Shown: positions 29,609 to 36,256 of the stretch, piece after piece
How the letters are laid out: every line of letters starts with the position of its first letter
How positions within the stretch are numbered: the first letter of the stretch is position 1
From: Chloroflexota bacterium
GTDB lineage: Bacteria; Chloroflexota; Limnocylindria; P2-11E
Assembly (NCBI GenBank): GCA_005882765.1
Contig: VBDV01000121.1
Span: 1 to 36,619 of the forward strand
Length of the DNA: 36,619 bases
Direction of reading: 5' to 3'
Notes under the pieces: model-generated
Told to the model about the DNA's origin: nothing
Seen by the model: the letters and a program-made list of their open reading frames with translations, nothing else
Databases searched by the model: none
Made by a program: the position numbers and the translations under genes

Positions 29609-30753
29609 AGCTTTCGCGCGACATCTGGCTCCTCAGCGGAGCACAGGTGCTGTTCGGATGCGGGTTCGGGCTTCTGTCAGCGGTCTGGCCGCTGTATCTC
29701 CGGGAGCTCGGCGCGAGCGCGCAGGAGATCGGGATTGTCTTCGGAGCCGGAAATCTGGTCGCCGTTCTCTGCTTCCTGCCCGCCGGATATCTCGCCGATC
29801 GCATCGGTCGGAAGCCCGTCATCACCGCGGCGTGGCTCTGCGCAGCGCTTGGTGTCGCGACATTCGTGCCGCTCACGGACTGGCACGGCGCGTTCGTCGG
29901 ATCGGCACTCTACTGGTCCGGGACCGCGGGGTTGCCGCTCATCATCGCGTACGTCACGTCGACCACACCGCGCAGCGAGCTTGGTCGCGCGCTCGGAATC
30001 GTGCTCGGCGCGTACTTCGCCGGAAACATCATCGGCGCCCCGATCGCAGGGGTGCTCGCGGCATCGGTCGGCTTCCGCGCGGCCATCGCGATCGCGGCCG
30101 CCCTACTCGCCGGGTCTGCCGCCCTGACGTTCGGTCTGCGATCCATCCCACCCCACGTCGAACGCGGACCCTTCCGGCCACCGCGCGCATTTTGGATTCT
30201 TCTGGCGATCACGCCGTTCGCGGCGATGCTCTCGATCGTGTCGCTGGCGTTCCTTCCGGTGTACCTGCGCGAGGTCGCCGCGATCCCGCTCGATCGCCTC
30301 GGTATCTATCTCGGCCTCGTGTCGGTCGGGGCCGCCGGACTCGCGGTGGCCGCAGGCCGGTTCGCGGACGCGTTCGGCGCTGTGCCGGCCCTGCTCGGTG
30401 CCGCGGGCATGATGGCCGCGGCCAGCGTGCTCATGGCACTTTCGGGGAGGGCGGAGCCGCTTGTCGGGATCGCGGCGCTCCTCCTCGGGGCGACGCAGGC
30501 GGCGAACCCGGTCGTCGCCTCCGCCGTGGAGCGCATCATTCCGCCGGCGCGCGCGGCGCAGGGCTACGCGACGTATCAGGTCGCGTTCGCGCTCGGATTC
30601 GGAGCGGGAGGTACGGTCGCCGGTTTTCTCTACGAGGCCGATCCGCTCCTGCCATTCATCGCCAGTGCCGCGCTGGCGTTGCCGGTCGCGGCGATCGTCG
30701 CCGCGGTGCTCGCGGGCGCCACTCCGAGCCTCAGGTCGACCGAGGTGTCGTAG
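29605..30753 (+). CDS. MFS transporter, probable CTG start
   Basis: The frame gives 382 residues from CTG 29605 or 368 from GTG 29647. It has about twelve spans: AQVLFGCGFGLLSAVWPLYL (span 1), GYLADRIGRKPVITAAWLCA (loop 2-3, the MFS signature), and a central loop with IPPHVERGPFRPPRA. CTG 29605 overlaps the amidohydrolase stop as CTGA and has AAAGG six nt upstream; the extra residues LKLSRDIWLLSGA extend span 1 naturally. GTG 29647 would begin inside it. It is the last gene of the regulator-amidohydrolase-carrier operon. Its 3' end overlaps the cyclase gene convergently by 23 nt. Confidence 0.82.
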   Translation: MKLSRDIWLLSGAQVLFGCGFGLLSAVWPLYLRELGASAQEIGIVFGAGNLVAVLCFLPAGYLADRIGRKPVITAAWLCAALGVATFVPLTDWHGAFVGSALYWSGTAGLPLIIAYVTSTTPRSELGRALGIVLGAYFAGNIIGAPIAGVLAASVGFRAAIAIAAALLAGSAALTFGLRSIPPHVERGPFRPPRAFWILLAITPFAAMLSIVSLAFLPVYLREVAAIPLDRLGIYLGLVSVGAAGLAVAAGRFADAFGAVPALLGAAGMMAAASVLMALSGRAEPLVGIAALLLGATQAANPVVASAVERIIPPARAAQGYATYQVAFALGFGAGGTVAGFLYEADPLLPFIASAALALPVAAIVAAVLAGATPSLRSTEVS

Positions 30754-33415
30754 CGGCCGAGTCCTCGAGTGCGTACGCGATGCCCGCGGTGAGGTCCATC
30801 GCGCCGCCGCGCTCGAATGCTGGCCGCAACTCCGGTGCGAGGTCCTCCGGTTTCGTACGGGCGTCCTGGCGCGAGATATCACCAAGGAGCCCGGTGCCGG
30901 CGCGGCGCGAGATCGCGTACGCGAGTCCGATGAGTGTGGCCTGCTTCTCGCGCTGTCCCTGCGCTCCCGCCAGCTCCGCGGAGTCGCTCGCGATGATGCC
31001 GAGGCCGGTCAGGTCGTTGTCCGCCTCGAAGATCGACGCGGCCTCGCGGAAGTCGGCGCTCGCCTTCGCGAACTGGCTCATCTTCAAGTGGATCATCCCG
31101 GTCAGATGCAACGACCAGGCAAGGTCGAAGCGGTTCGTGCCCGCGCGGTGCACGGCGAGCGCTTCGCTGGCGGCCGCGAGCGCACGCTCTAAGACGCTCG
31201 GGTCGATCTCTCCGCGTCGGCCCAGCTGAAGGAACGTCGCCACACCCCAGCTCGCGCGGCCGAGGCCGGCGGCGTTCCCGACACGCTTCCACTTCTCGCG
31301 GGCGGTATCGAGGAGCCTCAGCGCACGGTCGTTGTCGCGCAGCGGGACGCCGTAGATAAATGCGAGGTTGTACGCAGCGTTCGCCTGGTCTTCGAGATCA
31401 CCGTGCGCATCGGCGAGCTCGAGCGCCTTCGCATACGTGTCGAGTCCTTTCGGAATGTCGCCGCGCCAGTACGCGATGCCGCCCGCAGCCTCGTACGCTC
31501 GCATACGTACGAGCGGCGGTACGTTCTCGAACCCTAAAGCGAGGACGCGGTCGCACCACTGCGCCGCCTCGGTGAGATGGCCGCGCACCTGCCAGAAGCG
31601 CCACAGCGCGAACGTCATCCGCGATGCGTGCTCGGCACGTCCACGGCCGATGGCCCAATCAAGCGCTGCGCGTATGTTGTCGTGGTCGGCCTCGAGGAGG
31701 TCGAGCCACCTCTTCTGGCCCTCGCCTTGAAGATGCGTCCGCGCTTCCTCGGCCAGGGCCAGGTATGCGAGGGCGTGCCGCTCCGCGATCTCGTCGCGCT
31801 CGCCACTCTCCGCGAGCTTTTCGAGCGCGAACTCGCCGATCGTCACCAGCATGCGGAAGCGAGGCTCGCCTCCGACTTCCGACTGGCGCACCAAGCTCTG
31901 CTCGACGAGCGCGCTCAGGACCTCGAGGATGTCGCGCCCGAGCTCGCCCCCAGGACAGCCGACCGCCTCGATCTGCGGAAGCATCCCCCCGGAGACGAAG
32001 ACGCCGAGCCGCGCGAAGAGCCGACGCTCAGGTACCTCGAGGAGATTCCAGCTCCACTCGATGGCGCCGCGGAGCGTCCGCTGGCGTTCGGGGAGATCCC
32101 GGGCGGTCGAGGCGAGAACGTCCAACCCCTGCCGTAGCTTCGGCAGCATCGCCTGCGGCGTGAGGACCTTCACGCGAGCCGCCGCGAGCTCAATCGCGAG
32201 TGGGAGGCCGTCCAGCCGGTAGACGATCTCGGCGATGGGTGCGGCGTTCTCCGGAGTGACGCGGAAGTCGGGCCGCACCGCCATCGCGCGCTCCACGAAG
32301 AGCCGGACGGCGTCGGATTGCGCGAGGACCTCGAGCGCTGGGAGGCGTTCGGGGTCTGGGAGATCCAGCGGCGGCACCGGAAACTCCTGCTCGCCGGCGA
32401 TGCGAAGCGGCGCCCTGCTCGATGCGATGACCTTCAGCACCGGACTCGCGCCTAGAAGCTGACCCACGACGGTCGCGGCGCCGAGGATCTGCTCGAAGTT
32501 GTCAAGCACGAGGAGCATCTGTTTGCCGCGAACGTGATCGATTACGCGCGTAAGTGGAGCCTCGGAGCCCGAGACCTGAACACCGAGCGAGTGCGCGATG
32601 GTCGATGGCACGAGCTCGGGGTCGGTTATCGGCGCAAGCGGGACGAAGAACGTGCCATCGCCGAATCCATTCGCCGCCTCCTCGGCGATGCGCAGCGAGA
32701 GTCGGGTCTTTCCCGTCCCTCCGGGCCCGGTGAGCGTGACGAGTCGCGCCTTCTCGAGGAGTCGCTGACCTTCGGCGATCTCGCGCTCGCGGCCGATGAA
32801 GCTCGACGGCTGCGCCGGCAGGAACGTCGCGGCGCGATCGAGTGTCCGAAGCGGCGGAAAGTCGGGAACGCACCCGGTGATCACGAGCTGGAAGAGGTGC
32901 TCAGGCGTAGCGAGATCTTTCAGCCGGAATTCGCCGAGATCGCGGATCGACACGCCGTCGCCAAGATCCGGACGCGCCAGGGTGGCGGTCGCGTCGGTCA
33001 ACAGCACCTGACCGCCGTGGCCCGCGGCGGCGACGCGTGCCGCGCGGTTCACGTCTATGCCGACGTAGTCGGCACCCGCATCGGCTGTCGCGGGGCGGCC
33101 CTCGCCGGTGTGCATGCCCATGCGCACGCGGACAGTCGCGCCGTGAGGAAAGGTCGCGGCGGCAAGTGCGCGCTGCGCCGCGGCGGTCGCCCGGACGGCC
33201 TTCGCCGCGACCGGGAAGACCACAAAGAGCGCATCCCCCTCGACGCGGATCTCGACGCCGCCGTCTTTGAAAGCGTCGCGGAGGATGCGCGTGTGCGTCT
33301 CGAGGACATCCTGGTAGCGGTCGGTGCCGAGCTCGGTCTGGAGCTTGGTCGAGCCCTCGATGTCGGTGAATAGGAATGTCAGGGTGCCGGCCGGCAACCC
33401 CCTCCCCGCACTCAT
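30731..33415 (-). CDS. Class III adenylate/guanylate cyclase with NB-ARC ATPase and TPR domains
   Basis: This 894-residue multidomain regulator has a class III cyclase domain (about 10-180) with FTDIEGST (metal Asp18), RVEGDALFVVF (metal Asp61) and VNRAARVA (Asn123, Arg127). Arg57 stands where adenylate cyclases have the base-selecting Lys. A LuxR/NB-ARC-like ATPase follows (about 205-480), with Walker A GPGGTGKTR (230-238), LLVLDNFEQ (Walker B), SSRAPL, and GLPLAIELAAAR. The C-terminal half is helical TPR-like repeats (about 600-860). Such proteins make cAMP in response to signals read by the ATPase/TPR part. It is divergent from the cNMP-fold gene, with 63 nt between starts. Confidence 0.92.
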   Translation of the reverse strand: MSAGRGLPAGTLTFLFTDIEGSTKLQTELGTDRYQDVLETHTRILRDAFKDGGVEIRVEGDALFVVFPVAAKAVRATAAAQRALAAATFPHGATVRVRMGMHTGEGRPATADAGADYVGIDVNRAARVAAAGHGGQVLLTDATATLARPDLGDGVSIRDLGEFRLKDLATPEHLFQLVITGCVPDFPPLRTLDRAATFLPAQPSSFIGREREIAEGQRLLEKARLVTLTGPGGTGKTRLSLRIAEEAANGFGDGTFFVPLAPITDPELVPSTIAHSLGVQVSGSEAPLTRVIDHVRGKQMLLVLDNFEQILGAATVVGQLLGASPVLKVIASSRAPLRIAGEQEFPVPPLDLPDPERLPALEVLAQSDAVRLFVERAMAVRPDFRVTPENAAPIAEIVYRLDGLPLAIELAAARVKVLTPQAMLPKLRQGLDVLASTARDLPERQRTLRGAIEWSWNLLEVPERRLFARLGVFVSGGMLPQIEAVGCPGGELGRDILEVLSALVEQSLVRQSEVGGEPRFRMLVTIGEFALEKLAESGERDEIAERHALAYLALAEEARTHLQGEGQKRWLDLLEADHDNIRAALDWAIGRGRAEHASRMTFALWRFWQVRGHLTEAAQWCDRVLALGFENVPPLVRMRAYEAAGGIAYWRGDIPKGLDTYAKALELADAHGDLEDQANAAYNLAFIYGVPLRDNDRALRLLDTAREKWKRVGNAAGLGRASWGVATFLQLGRRGEIDPSVLERALAAASEALAVHRAGTNRFDLAWSLHLTGMIHLKMSQFAKASADFREAASIFEADNDLTGLGIIASDSAELAGAQGQREKQATLIGLAYAISRRAGTGLLGDISRQDARTKPEDLAPELRPAFERGGAMDLTAGIAYALEDSAATTPRST

Positions 33416-33443
33416 CCTGCTTTGATTCTGCGCTATCTGCCGT

Positions 33444-33470
33444 TTGCCAAGACGCGGGCGAGCCTATAGA
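33444..33470 (+). promoter_or_regulatory. -35/-10 promoter of the cNMP-fold gene
   Basis: TTGCCA (33444-33449) and TATAGA (33465-33470) are near consensus with a 15-bp spacer, eight nt before ATG 33479. The region is shared with the divergent large cyclase. Confidence 0.5.
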
Positions 33471-33478
33471 CAACAGCG

Positions 33479-33904
33479 ATGCGCTCGGCGGCCGACGACA
33501 TCAGCGAAACGCTCGCCGGCCTCGCGATCTTCGCCGATCTCTCCCGCCCCGAGGTCGAGCGGATCGCCCACACGCTCGAGGAGCGCTACTTCGCTCAGGA
33601 CGAGCGAGTTCTCCGCGAGGGCCTCTCCGGCTCGGCCTTTTACATCATCCTCGACGGCGAGGCCGCGGTGATCGCGGGTGGTAAACGCGTGAATACGCTC
33701 GGGCGCGGCGAGTTCTTCGGGGAGATCTCCGTCCTTCTGGGTGAGGCCCCGGTGGCGGACATCATCGCGGCGCGGCCACTCCGTTGTCTCGTCCTGCCCG
33801 GCGAGCTCTTGAAGGAATTCCTGCAGACGAACCCACGCGTCTGCTACCGCATCCTCGTGGCGGAAGCCCGCAAGCTCGCGAACGCGACGCGGAGGGGCGG
33901 CTGA
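33479..33904 (+). CDS. Single-domain cyclic-nucleotide-binding-fold protein
   Basis: This 141-residue protein is one CRP/PKA-type cNMP-binding domain, with no DNA-binding part. Visible are LAIFADLSRPEVERIAHTLE, the beta-roll VLREGLSGSAFYIILDGEAA, and the phosphate cassette FFGEISVLLGEAPVADIIAA (about 79-98). The cassette keeps Phe-Gly-Glu but has Pro-Val-Ala where family members have Arg-x-Ala, so the phosphate-binding Arg is missing. It may not bind cAMP in the usual way. The stop overlaps the next gene's CTG as CTGA, so it is translated with the flavoprotein and probably acts as its partner subunit. Confidence 0.85.
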   Translation: MRSAADDISETLAGLAIFADLSRPEVERIAHTLEERYFAQDERVLREGLSGSAFYIILDGEAAVIAGGKRVNTLGRGEFFGEISVLLGEAPVADIIAARPLRCLVLPGELLKEFLQTNPRVCYRILVAEARKLANATRRGG

Positions 33905-35391
33905 CGGAGCGACCGCATCCACCCGGCGACTATCCGGTCGTTCTCGTCGGCAGCGGACCCGGCGGCCTGCAGATCAGCTACTCGCTCTCGCGACTCGGCG
34001 TGAAGCATGCCGCGATCTCGGCCGACGAGAACGCCGGCGGCATGTTCCGCAAGTGGCCGTTCTTCCAGCGCCTGCTCTCTTGGACCAAGCCGTATGCCCC
34101 GTTCGAGCAGGGCACGCGCGAGTACGAGCGCTACGACTGGAACAGCCTGCTTCCCGAAGAGAAGGCGTGCCGCGCACTCATGTGCTCGATGATGGACGGC
34201 ACTTCGTACTACCCCTCGCGCCCCGAGATGCAACGTAACCTCGAAGCGTTCGCCGAGCGCACCGGCGTCGCCGTGCGTTACGGCTGCCGCTGGACCGGAA
34301 CCCGGCGCGACGGCGATCGCTGGGTCCTCGAGACGAGCGACGGCGAGTACCGCTGCCAGGTCCCGATCTTCGCTGTGGGTGTGGCCGAGCCGTGGCGTCC
34401 GCAGATGCCCGGTATCGAGGACGTCCCGCATTACGCCGAGACGCGTCCTGCGGAGACCTATGCGGGCCGGCGCGTCTTCATCGTTGGCAAAGAGAACTCA
34501 GGATTCGAGCTTGCGACGGGATTCCTCCAGTGGGCGAAGCAGATCGTCCTCGCGTCTCCATCGCCGGCGAAGCTCTCGATCAACACGCGCTCGCTCGTCG
34601 GAGTCCGCGCGCGCTATGTGCAGCCGTATGAGGATCACGTCCTCGCGGGCGGCGTCATCGTGCTCGACGCGTCGATCGAGCGCGTCGAGCGGACCGGTAA
34701 GACGTTCCGCGTGCACACCCGAAAGGCAGAAAGCGCCGTCGAGCTCGTCTTCGAGGTCGACGACGTCATCGCGGCGACGGGTTTCACTAGCCCGATCCAA
34801 GATCTCGCCAAGCTCGGCGTCGCGACGGTCGGCCGCAACAAGCTCCCCGCGCAGACGCCGTTCTGGGAGAGCGCGTCGGTCCCGGGCGTGTATTTCGGCG
34901 GGACGATCCACCAGGCATCGCCCGGCCTGCGCAAGCACGGCCTGCCCAGTAACTCAGGCGGCGTGAACGGGCATCGCTACAACGGCCGGATCCTCGCGCG
35001 CCACGTCGCTAAGAAGCACTTCGGCATCGACCCCGAGCGGCCGGTCATCGCCCGCGCCGAGATCGTGTCCTATCTATTGCACGAGGTTACGAACGCGCCG
35101 GAGCTGTGGCACCAGAAGTCGTATCTCGCGCGCGTGCTCGTCCAAGATCCCAAGCGCGGGATCGTCGACGACGGGATCGTCCCGCTCCAGAGCTTCGTCG
35201 ACTCAGGTCCGGCAGACGGCGCCGCCGCGACGCTCGAGGAGAATCCCGCGGGCGACATCTACCCGGTCCTCTACACCCGCCGCGGTGGCATAAGCGCCGA
35301 GCACGCCCTGCCGCCGCACCCGCTGCACGACTTCCGCACGCGCGACCACGAGAAGGCGGTCGTTGCTGCGCTCGAGGGTCTGCTCCTCTAG
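33901..35391 (+). CDS. FAD/NAD(P)-binding flavoprotein (COG2072-like), CTG start
   Basis: This 496-residue protein starts at CTG 33901, with GGAGG five nt upstream and a CTGA overlap; no ATG, GTG or TTG is suitably placed in frame. The FAD Rossmann motif is YPVVLVGSGPGGLQ (Gly17-x-Gly19-x-x-Gly22) and the NAD(P) site RRVFIVGKENSGFELA; FAVGVAEPWRPQMPG and ATGFTSPI complete the monooxygenase/K+-transport-flavoprotein pattern. There is no CxxC, so it is not a thioredoxin reductase; CRALMC is a CX4C. Fusions of cNMP domains to flavin reductases are known in actinobacteria, so coupling to the cNMP-fold protein suggests a ligand-controlled redox enzyme. The substrate is unknown. Confidence 0.85.
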   Translation: MTERPHPPGDYPVVLVGSGPGGLQISYSLSRLGVKHAAISADENAGGMFRKWPFFQRLLSWTKPYAPFEQGTREYERYDWNSLLPEEKACRALMCSMMDGTSYYPSRPEMQRNLEAFAERTGVAVRYGCRWTGTRRDGDRWVLETSDGEYRCQVPIFAVGVAEPWRPQMPGIEDVPHYAETRPAETYAGRRVFIVGKENSGFELATGFLQWAKQIVLASPSPAKLSINTRSLVGVRARYVQPYEDHVLAGGVIVLDASIERVERTGKTFRVHTRKAESAVELVFEVDDVIAATGFTSPIQDLAKLGVATVGRNKLPAQTPFWESASVPGVYFGGTIHQASPGLRKHGLPSNSGGVNGHRYNGRILARHVAKKHFGIDPERPVIARAEIVSYLLHEVTNAPELWHQKSYLARVLVQDPKRGIVDDGIVPLQSFVDSGPADGAAATLEENPAGDIYPVLYTRRGGISAEHALPPHPLHDFRTRDHEKAVVAALEGLLL

Positions 35392-35407
35392 AGGAGTTTC
35401 CGGCGGC

Positions 35408-36256
35408 TTGCAGGCGGAGATTAGCCTGCGGCTGGTGGCGCCCCGGCTGAGCGCTGAAGCGGAGTGGCGGGAGTTTCTCACGCACGGGAACCCCGGCCTG
35501 CAGCGGCTGCGCGCCCTGTTCCGACGAGTGCCGGAGGATCCTCGGTGCGTTTCCTGCTGTGCGCCTTTCAAAGGGCCAGTGGCGCCGTTGTTTCGGGCGC
35601 TTGGGTTCACGCGCTTCGACAAGAACCCGCGCTGGTGCGCAAACTGCTTCGGCCATCTCGTCAAGCATCAGATCGGCGGGGCCGTCGTCGAGATCTCGAT
35701 GCTCTTCGCCGACGTGCGCGGATCGACACCGATGGCCGAATCGATGGCGCCGACGCAGTTCCACACGATCATCGACCGCTTCTACGCCGAAGGCACGCGC
35801 GCGCTGATCGCGCACGACGCGCTGATCGAGCGGTTCATGGGCGACCAGATCGTCGCGTATTTCGTGCCCAGCTTCGCGGGTGCCGCCCACGCCCGTCGTG
35901 CGATCGACGCGGGCCTGGCGCTCCTCGAAGCGACGGGTCACGGCGATCCGGGCGGACCGTGGATACCGGTGGGGGTCGGTGTTCATACTGGCGACGCGTT
36001 CGTGGGAACCGTCGGTGACCCACGTCAGGTCGTCAACTTCACCGCCCTGGGTGACGCAGTGAATCTCGGCGCGCGTCTCGCATCGGCTGCCATCGACGGA
36101 GCGCTCGTGGTGAGCGAAGCGTCCGCGTCTCTCGGCGGACTACCTAAAGACGCCGGCGACCGCCGGTCGGTCTCCGTCAAAGGAAAACACGACGCGATCG
36201 CGGTGCGTGTCCTCACAGTGGCGGCCTCCAAGGCGATTCTTCAGTCCGCGCGTTAA
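35408..36256 (+). CDS. Class III adenylate/guanylate cyclase with N-terminal Cys cluster
   Basis: This 282-residue protein is measured from TTG 35408; GTG 35435 (273 residues) is also possible and has no better site. The N-terminal part has CVSCC and CANC (Cys47, Cys50, Cys51, Cys77, Cys80 in the TTG numbering) separated by APFKGPVAPLFRALGF, a pattern that may bind zinc or an iron-sulfur cluster. The cyclase domain follows: SMLFADVRGSTPMAE (Asp102), ERFMGDQIVAYF (Asp146), and VNFTALGDAVNLGARLASAA. As in the large cyclase, Arg (142) replaces the usual base-selecting Lys. It lies 16 nt after the flavoprotein and is probably in the same operon. Confidence 0.88.
   Translation: MQAEISLRLVAPRLSAEAEWREFLTHGNPGLQRLRALFRRVPEDPRCVSCCAPFKGPVAPLFRALGFTRFDKNPRWCANCFGHLVKHQIGGAVVEISMLFADVRGSTPMAESMAPTQFHTIIDRFYAEGTRALIAHDALIERFMGDQIVAYFVPSFAGAAHARRAIDAGLALLEATGHGDPGGPWIPVGVGVHTGDAFVGTVGDPRQVVNFTALGDAVNLGARLASAAIDGALVVSEASASLGGLPKDAGDRRSVSVKGKHDAIAVRVLTVAASKAILQSAR

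What the first reader, a model, noticed from the sequence alone, without database searches (positions are those of the whole stretch)
30731..36256. Cyclase / cNMP-fold / flavoprotein / cyclase locus as a possible second-messenger-linked redox module
Seen: a class III cyclase fused to NB-ARC and TPR domains is divergent (63 nt) from a single-domain cNMP-fold gene, which is coupled (CTGA) to a flavoprotein and followed 16 nt later by a second class III cyclase with a Cys cluster. Two makers, a candidate sensor and an oxidoreductase lie side by side. Fusions of cNMP domains to flavin reductases are known; here the parts are separate. Inference: the large cyclase signals, the cNMP-fold protein tunes the flavoprotein, and the second cyclase reports redox through its Cys cluster.
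Basis: partly seen in the sequence, partly recalled or inferred. Interest (0 to 1): 0.7.

Follow-up and report, generated by a model that had tools for sequence, protein, structure and literature searches.

The report
Conserved cyclase, cNMP-fold, flavoprotein gene module
In a group of uncultured soil bacteria a flavin enzyme is always encoded next to a small protein shaped like a cyclic-AMP receptor, and usually next to a large cyclase, but the receptor's cyclic-AMP pocket has lost its key residue, so the partnership is real while the obvious cAMP-sensing explanation is probably wrong.

Summary
Three form a real, deeply conserved module; the fourth does not. In related genomes of Chloroflexota and of MAGs labelled Dormibacterota and Actinomycetota, the flavoprotein (FLAV) has the single-domain cNMP-fold gene (cNMP1) immediately upstream wherever sequence exists. 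The cyclase/NTPase/TPR gene (NBcyc) is adjacent in 42 of 53 loci, in two main arrangements; an even phylum sample gives cNMP1 28/28 and NBcyc 23/28. The second cyclase is absent from the same place in five same-genus loci, and its Cys cluster is common in unlinked cyclases, so it is an insertion.

The cAMP-sensor idea is weakened. cNMP1 lost the cyclic-phosphate-binding Arg (invariant Pro91) and gained an invariant Asp94. A second cNMP gene with a canonical pocket joins NBcyc in about a dozen loci, but not in the window's family. NBcyc keeps its metal Asps and transition-state Arg, but its substrate Lys is Arg or Gly. FLAV is YpdA-like, lacks CxxC and has an extra C-terminal domain.

Best reading: a dedicated cNMP1·FLAV two-subunit oxidoreductase, controlled from a STAND-type cyclase locus but not by cAMP binding to cNMP1. 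New variant of the known CNB–pyridine-nucleotide oxidoreductase association.

The parts
30731..33415 (-). NBcyc: class III cyclase domain (aa 11-166, 33385-32918), STAND/AAA-type NTPase (about aa 206-310, 32800-32486), TPR region (aa 743-797, 31189-31025)
   Evidence: Pfam. Metal Asps and transition-state Arg 42/42 and P-loop Lys 39/39 across module homologues; substrate Lys replaced by R/G in 41/42; transition-state residue N (16) or H (26)
33416..33478 (.). 63-nt divergent intergenic region between NBcyc and cNMP1
   Evidence: sequence
33479..33904 (+). cNMP1: stand-alone cNMP-fold protein, 141 aa, no HTH or other domain
   Evidence: PF00027; AlphaFold2 pLDDT 91.6 and Foldseek hits to PKA/PKG/HCN/CRP CNB domains
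33716..33769 (+). phosphate-binding cassette FGEISVLLGEAPVADIIA: Glu82 kept, Arg position = Pro91 (33749-33751), Asp94 (33758-33760)
   Evidence: no Arg in any of 51 homologues; P91 and D94 invariant in the 31-row alignment A2; register from the HMMER alignment to PKG GERALLYDEPRSATIIA
33891..33903 (+). GGAGG (33891-33895) and CTG start codon (33901) of FLAV inside the end of cNMP1
   Evidence: the start codon itself is inferred
33901..35391 (+). FLAV: FAD/NAD(P)-dependent oxidoreductase, YpdA/Bdr-like core without CxxC, plus an extra C-terminal alpha/beta domain (about aa 400-496, 35098-35388)
   Evidence: Pfam, alignment A1, PDB sequence search, AlphaFold2 and Foldseek
35408..36256 (+). cyc2: unlinked class III cyclase inserted between FLAV and the glyoxalase gene; NOT part of the module. 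Cys cluster at 35546-35647
   Evidence: absent from the FLAV-glyoxalase junction in L031, L032, L036, L038, L075; 78% DNA match to G012:C78 with no shared flanks

Best explanation
cNMP1 and FLAV make a dedicated two-subunit NAD(P)H-dependent flavoprotein: cNMP1 is its regulatory or structural subunit, produced at matched amounts by translational coupling. cNMP1 does not work as a cAMP/cGMP receptor, because its pocket has lost the Arg that holds the cyclic phosphate; the pocket is either filled by a protein segment or used for a ligand without a cyclic phosphate. NBcyc is a STAND-type sensor (NTPase plus TPR) whose class III cyclase domain either makes a cyclic nucleotide read by a different, canonical receptor (cNMP2 where present) or acts as a nucleotide-dependent switch; it sets the expression or activity of the cNMP1-FLAV pair. 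Shown: conserved linkage and co-occurrence, loss of the Arg, conservation of catalytic residues, YpdA-like fold without CxxC. Inferred: physical complex, direction of signalling, NAD(P)H use and substrate.
For: cNMP1 occurs in the same genomes as FLAV: cNMP1 matches above 130 bits in 25 of the 26 FLAV-bearing genomes among 61 relatives (the exception, G006, is cut by a contig end), and nothing between 70 and 131 bits elsewhere. cNMP1 is directly upstream wherever sequence exists, and in 28 of 28 loci from an even phylum sample. NBcyc is adjacent in 42 of 53 loci: 29 divergent and 13 co-directional downstream (L071 is counted as downstream after allowing for its split FLAV match). The downstream loci form one supported clade, so the link survived a rearrangement. 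The Arg position is an invariant Pro, whereas cNMP2 (14 aligned) and most other cNMP proteins of the same genome keep Arg. A published survey notes that families lacking this Arg can bind other ligands (PMC2246266). FLAV's closest solved folds are YpdA/Bdr and small flavin monooxygenases.
Against: No physical interaction is shown; no complex could be modelled. Loss of the Arg does not prove loss of binding: Glu82 and the Gly-rich loop are kept. NBcyc is not next to the pair in family f4 (G032, G034, G056) or in G053. Module NBcycs intermix with non-module paralogues in the tree, so cNMP1-FLAV can exist without it.
Confidence: 0.5

Rival explanations
1. One reading: NBcyc makes cAMP/cGMP, cNMP1 binds it and tunes FLAV; the second cyclase reports redox through its Cys cluster.
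For: Three of the four genes are conserved together. NBcyc keeps both metal Asps and the transition-state Arg. The cNMP1 fold is a CNB domain with Glu82 kept.
Against: The PBC Arg is missing in all 51 cNMP1 homologues. The substrate Lys is replaced in 41 of 42 NBcycs. cyc2 is absent from the locus in five same-genus relatives, and its Cys cluster is common to unlinked cyclases.
Confidence: 0.15
2. The cNMP1 pocket was re-purposed for a different small ligand (a nucleoside, a nicotinamide-derived or other purine compound), and this ligand gates FLAV, as nucleosides replaced cAMP in trypanosome PKA.
For: The pocket Glu82 and flanking residues are invariant although Arg is lost, with a new invariant Asp94. 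There is a published precedent of a CNB domain that lost Arg and binds nucleosides (PMC10959531).
Against: In the trypanosome proteins the key change is Glu at the Ala202 position; cNMP1 has Ser84 there. No ligand is known.
Confidence: 0.2
3. Pocket blocked by an intrinsic or partner peptide, as in KCNH channels, so that cNMP1 is purely a protein-protein adaptor for FLAV.
For: The KCNH PBC consensus GENFWLYGTKSNADVRA also lacks Arg and has Asp at the same position as cNMP1 Asp94 (PMC2246266). hERG CNBHD does not bind cAMP and its pocket is filled by a short strand (PMC4812329).
Against: No aromatic self-ligand strand is evident after the C-terminal helix of cNMP1 (model); the Trp tail seen in other lineages is missing in the window.
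Confidence: 0.2
4. A Pycsar-like or other anti-phage module: a cyclase senses infection and a CNB-linked effector (here a flavoprotein draining NAD(P)H) responds.
For: PADLOC PycC/PycTIR models match weakly at domain level. STAND sensors and class III cyclases occur in defence (own knowledge).
Against: No TIR or membrane effector; matches are at superfamily level; no defence-model match among eight neighbouring window ORFs; the module is mostly single-copy and clade-wide.
Confidence: 0.07

Closest known systems
Bact_Pyrredox family of CNB proteins (tandem CNB fused to a pyridine nucleotide-disulphide oxidoreductase; PMC2246266, Table 1)
   Same: A CNB domain and a pyridine-nucleotide oxidoreductase work as a unit.
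   Different: Separate genes here; single CNB; PBC Arg lost (the family consensus GEMGLISGRRRGATVRA keeps it); flavoprotein without CxxC and with an extra C-terminal domain; a cyclase gene alongside.
YpdA/Bdr bacillithiol disulfide reductase (PDB 7a76, 7a7b, 7apr)
   Same: Best Foldseek match (TM-score 0.79 by target length), TrxR-like core without CxxC, N-S-containing second nucleotide motif.
   Different: About 18% identity, 496 versus about 325 aa, an extra C-terminal alpha/beta domain, an obligate cNMP-fold partner gene.
Mclx/Rv0386 family and AfsR-like proteins (cyclase + AAA/NB-ARC)
   Same: N-terminal noncanonical class III cyclase followed by a STAND-type NTPase.
   Different: TPR C-terminus; no LuxR HTH domain found.
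Response-regulator/TrxR-like + cNMP-histidine kinase + NBcyc operon in relatives (L155, L159, L165)
   Same: The same NBcyc family beside a cNMP-domain protein and a CxxC-less pyridine-nucleotide oxidoreductase.
   Different: The cNMP domain is canonical and part of a histidine kinase; the flavoprotein carries a receiver domain.
Pycsar
   Same: Class III cyclase beside a CNB-domain protein.
   Different: No TIR or membrane effector; PBC Arg lost; NTPase and TPR on the cyclase.

Membership tests
Canonical cNMP receptor (CNB domain) | CNB beta-roll fold | tested here: met
   PF00027; AlphaFold2 and Foldseek
Canonical cNMP receptor (CNB domain) | phosphate-binding Arg in the PBC | tested here: not met
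   Pro91 in the window; no Arg in any of 51 homologues
Canonical cNMP receptor (CNB domain) | binds cAMP or cGMP | not testable with these tools
   needs ITC or similar
Active class III adenylyl/guanylyl cyclase (NBcyc) | two metal Asps and transition-state Arg | tested here: met
   42/42
Active class III adenylyl/guanylyl cyclase (NBcyc) | substrate-specifying Lys | tested here: not met
   R or G in 41/42; R in the window
Active class III adenylyl/guanylyl cyclase (NBcyc) | transition-state Asn | tested here: inconclusive
   N in the window, H in 26 of 42 homologues
YpdA/Bdr bacillithiol disulfide reductase | TrxR-like two-dinucleotide-domain fold without CxxC | tested here: met
YpdA/Bdr bacillithiol disulfide reductase | NCBIfam YpdA model cut-off (339.9 bits) | tested here: not met
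   32.6 bits
Thioredoxin reductase | redox-active CxxC | tested here: not met
   only Cys129 is nearly invariant
CNB-oxidoreductase fusion (Bact_Pyrredox) | CNB and oxidoreductase in one polypeptide | tested here: not met
   separate overlapping frames in the loci examined
Pycsar | CNB fused to a TIR or membrane effector | tested here: not met
   no such domain by Pfam; PADLOC matches cover only CNB and cyclase parts
Mclx (cyclase-NB-ARC-LuxR) | C-terminal LuxR HTH | tested here: not met
   only TPR found

The most novel reading that the evidence does not exclude
cNMP1 is a CNB domain that gave up cyclic nucleotides and became the obligate ligand- or protein-gated subunit of a new flavoprotein family, while a STAND-type cyclase beside it signals through an unusual nucleotide or as a nucleotide switch. 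The same cyclase family recurs with other cNMP/flavoprotein sets, which would make it a general, undescribed signalling-to-redox module of these soil bacteria.
Probability: 0.3. Interest if true: 0.72.

Novelty: new variant of a known kind. Interest (0 to 1): 0.55.

Why it matters
It gives a clean, testable case of a cNMP-fold domain kept under strong selection without its cyclic-phosphate anchor, as the fixed partner of an uncharacterised flavoprotein. If confirmed, it shows what such degenerate CNB domains do in bacteria, and warns against annotating a cyclase next to a cNMP domain as a cAMP circuit. It also points to a recurring link between STAND-type cyclases and pyridine-nucleotide oxidoreductases in uncultured soil Chloroflexota.

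Tried and rejected
cyc2 as a module member: rejected. Cys cluster as a redox reporter: rejected as specific to this locus, because unlinked cyclases share it. Thioredoxin reductase identity: rejected, no CxxC. Pycsar: considered, matches only at domain level. An in-frame cNMP-FLAV fusion: not seen. Module-specific NBcyc clade: not clean, since ungrouped paralogues fall among module members. An early hand alignment put Val at the Arg position; the HMMER alignment to PKG corrected it to Pro91. Distance correlations among the three proteins are confounded by shared ancestry and are not used. Literature searches found no description of this module, but the library holds open-access papers only.

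Full report
Observation. FLAV's CTG has a GGAGG 5 nt upstream and no nearby in-frame ATG/GTG/TTG, so it probably starts there; other lineages show an in-frame GTG in the overlap. The genome is a 2.7-Mb draft whose close relatives are MAGs labelled Chloroflexi or Candidatus Limnocylindrales.

Conservation. A scan of one genome per species gave 48 loci, most labelled Chloroflexi, with a few labelled Dormibacterota or Actinomycetota. cNMP1 sits directly upstream of FLAV in every locus that retains that sequence (rows flagged as lacking it are contig ends, frameshifts or slightly wider gaps). Among 61 relatives, strong cNMP1 matches (at least 131 bits) occur in 25 of the 26 FLAV genomes, the exception being a cut contig, and the next matches are at 70 bits. 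In an even sample of 400 genomes of the phylum, 37 have FLAV; of the 28 loci read around those matches, 28 have cNMP1 and 23 have NBcyc within about 1.5 kb. In the larger set NBcyc is adjacent in 42 of 53 loci: 29 divergent upstream, 13 downstream. The downstream arrangement is one supported clade. This is far above what 12 cyclase genes in a 2.7-Mb genome would give by chance. NBcyc is not adjacent in family f4 or in G053.

The fourth gene. In five same-genus loci FLAV is followed directly by the glyoxalase gene, with no cyc2. The closest cyc2 relative found (80% identical, G012) lies on another contig and shares no flanks with the window. The CxxC...CxxC cluster is present in unlinked cyclases of the same type. 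cyc2 is therefore an insertion and not part of the module.

cNMP1. The fold is a normal CNB domain. Its phosphate-binding cassette reads FGEISVLLGEAPVADIIA. Aligned by HMMER to PKG (GERALLYDEPRSATIIA), the cyclic-phosphate Arg is Pro91, and Asp94 follows three residues later; both are invariant in alignment A2, and no homologue of 51 has the Arg. Glu82 is invariant. In the same genome most other cNMP proteins keep the Arg. A second cNMP gene with a canonical cassette (cNMP2) lies beside NBcyc in about a dozen loci, but not in the window's genus or family among the loci read. Published work links loss of this Arg to other ligands or none: the survey of CNB families (PMC2246266), trypanosome PKA responding to nucleosides (PMC10959531), and hERG, whose pocket is filled by a strand and which does not bind cAMP (PMC4812329). 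The KCNH consensus shares the Asp at the same position.

NBcyc. Both metal Asps and the transition-state Arg are invariant in 42 homologues, and the NTPase P-loop Lys is present in all 39 with sequence. The substrate Lys is R or G in 41, and the transition-state Asn is N in 16 (including the window) and H in 26. Activity is possible but not predictable. Rv0386, with a related architecture, is an active cyclase with unusual substrate selection (cited in PMC3938503 and PMC4452763). In the tree, module NBcycs are one side of a branch among the labelled groups, but unlabelled paralogues fall inside.

FLAV. Profile and fold searches place the core with YpdA/Bdr, TrxR-like proteins and small flavin monooxygenases. 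There is no CxxC; Cys129 alone is nearly invariant. About 95 C-terminal residues form an extra alpha/beta domain with no Pfam match. Substrate unknown.

A wider theme. In three f4 genomes an NBcyc homologue ends an operon of a response regulator fused to a CxxC-less TrxR-like flavoprotein and a cNMP-histidine kinase with a canonical Arg (the missing CxxC was checked in L165 only). In five others it lies some kilobases from a dihydrolipoamide-dehydrogenase-like gene. An Actinomycetota-labelled MAG has cNMP1-FLAV near a cNMP2 gene and a TPR-cyclase. A cyclase, a cNMP domain and a flavoprotein thus come together in more than one form.

Mechanism. The best-supported reading is a dedicated cNMP1-FLAV oxidoreductase whose cNMP-fold subunit is not a cAMP receptor, controlled from a locus with a STAND-type cyclase. 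Linkage and residue changes are shown; the complex, signal and substrate are inferred. Rivals are the cAMP-tuned model, a re-purposed ligand pocket, a blocked pocket (adaptor), and a Pycsar-like system (weak domain-level matches only).

Novelty. CNB domains fused to pyridine-nucleotide oxidoreductases are known (PMC2246266). The split, Arg-less, cyclase-linked form with this flavoprotein was not found in the literature searched. It is filed as a new variant of a known kind.

Noticed in passing
L155:2326-9136, L165:445-7505, L159:1699-8454: Operon of [response regulator + TrxR-like flavoprotein, CxxC-less where checked], [cNMP + histidine kinase] and an NBcyc homologue in family f4 genomes: a second cyclase/cNMP/flavoprotein architecture.
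   Followed up: partly
L109:7537-9279, L111:1757-3451, L112:10817-12826: MFS transporters fused to a C-terminal cNMP domain with canonical Arg lie close to the cNMP1-FLAV pair in genomes without an adjacent NBcyc.
   Followed up: partly
window:33891-33903: Likely CTG start codon of FLAV with a GGAGG 5 nt upstream, kept across the genus; gene callers limited to ATG/GTG/TTG would misplace the start.
   Followed up: partly
L073:1397-7503: In a MAG labelled Actinomycetota, cNMP1-FLAV lies opposite a second cNMP gene and a TPR protein with a C-terminal cyclase domain.
   Followed up: partly
L148, L151, L153, L154, L156: NBcyc homologues some kilobases from a dihydrolipoamide-dehydrogenase-like flavoprotein in five f4 genomes.
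   Followed up: no
L077:2519-3921, L078:2395-3839: FLAV split over frames in two MAGs; assembly error or decay not resolved.
   Followed up: no
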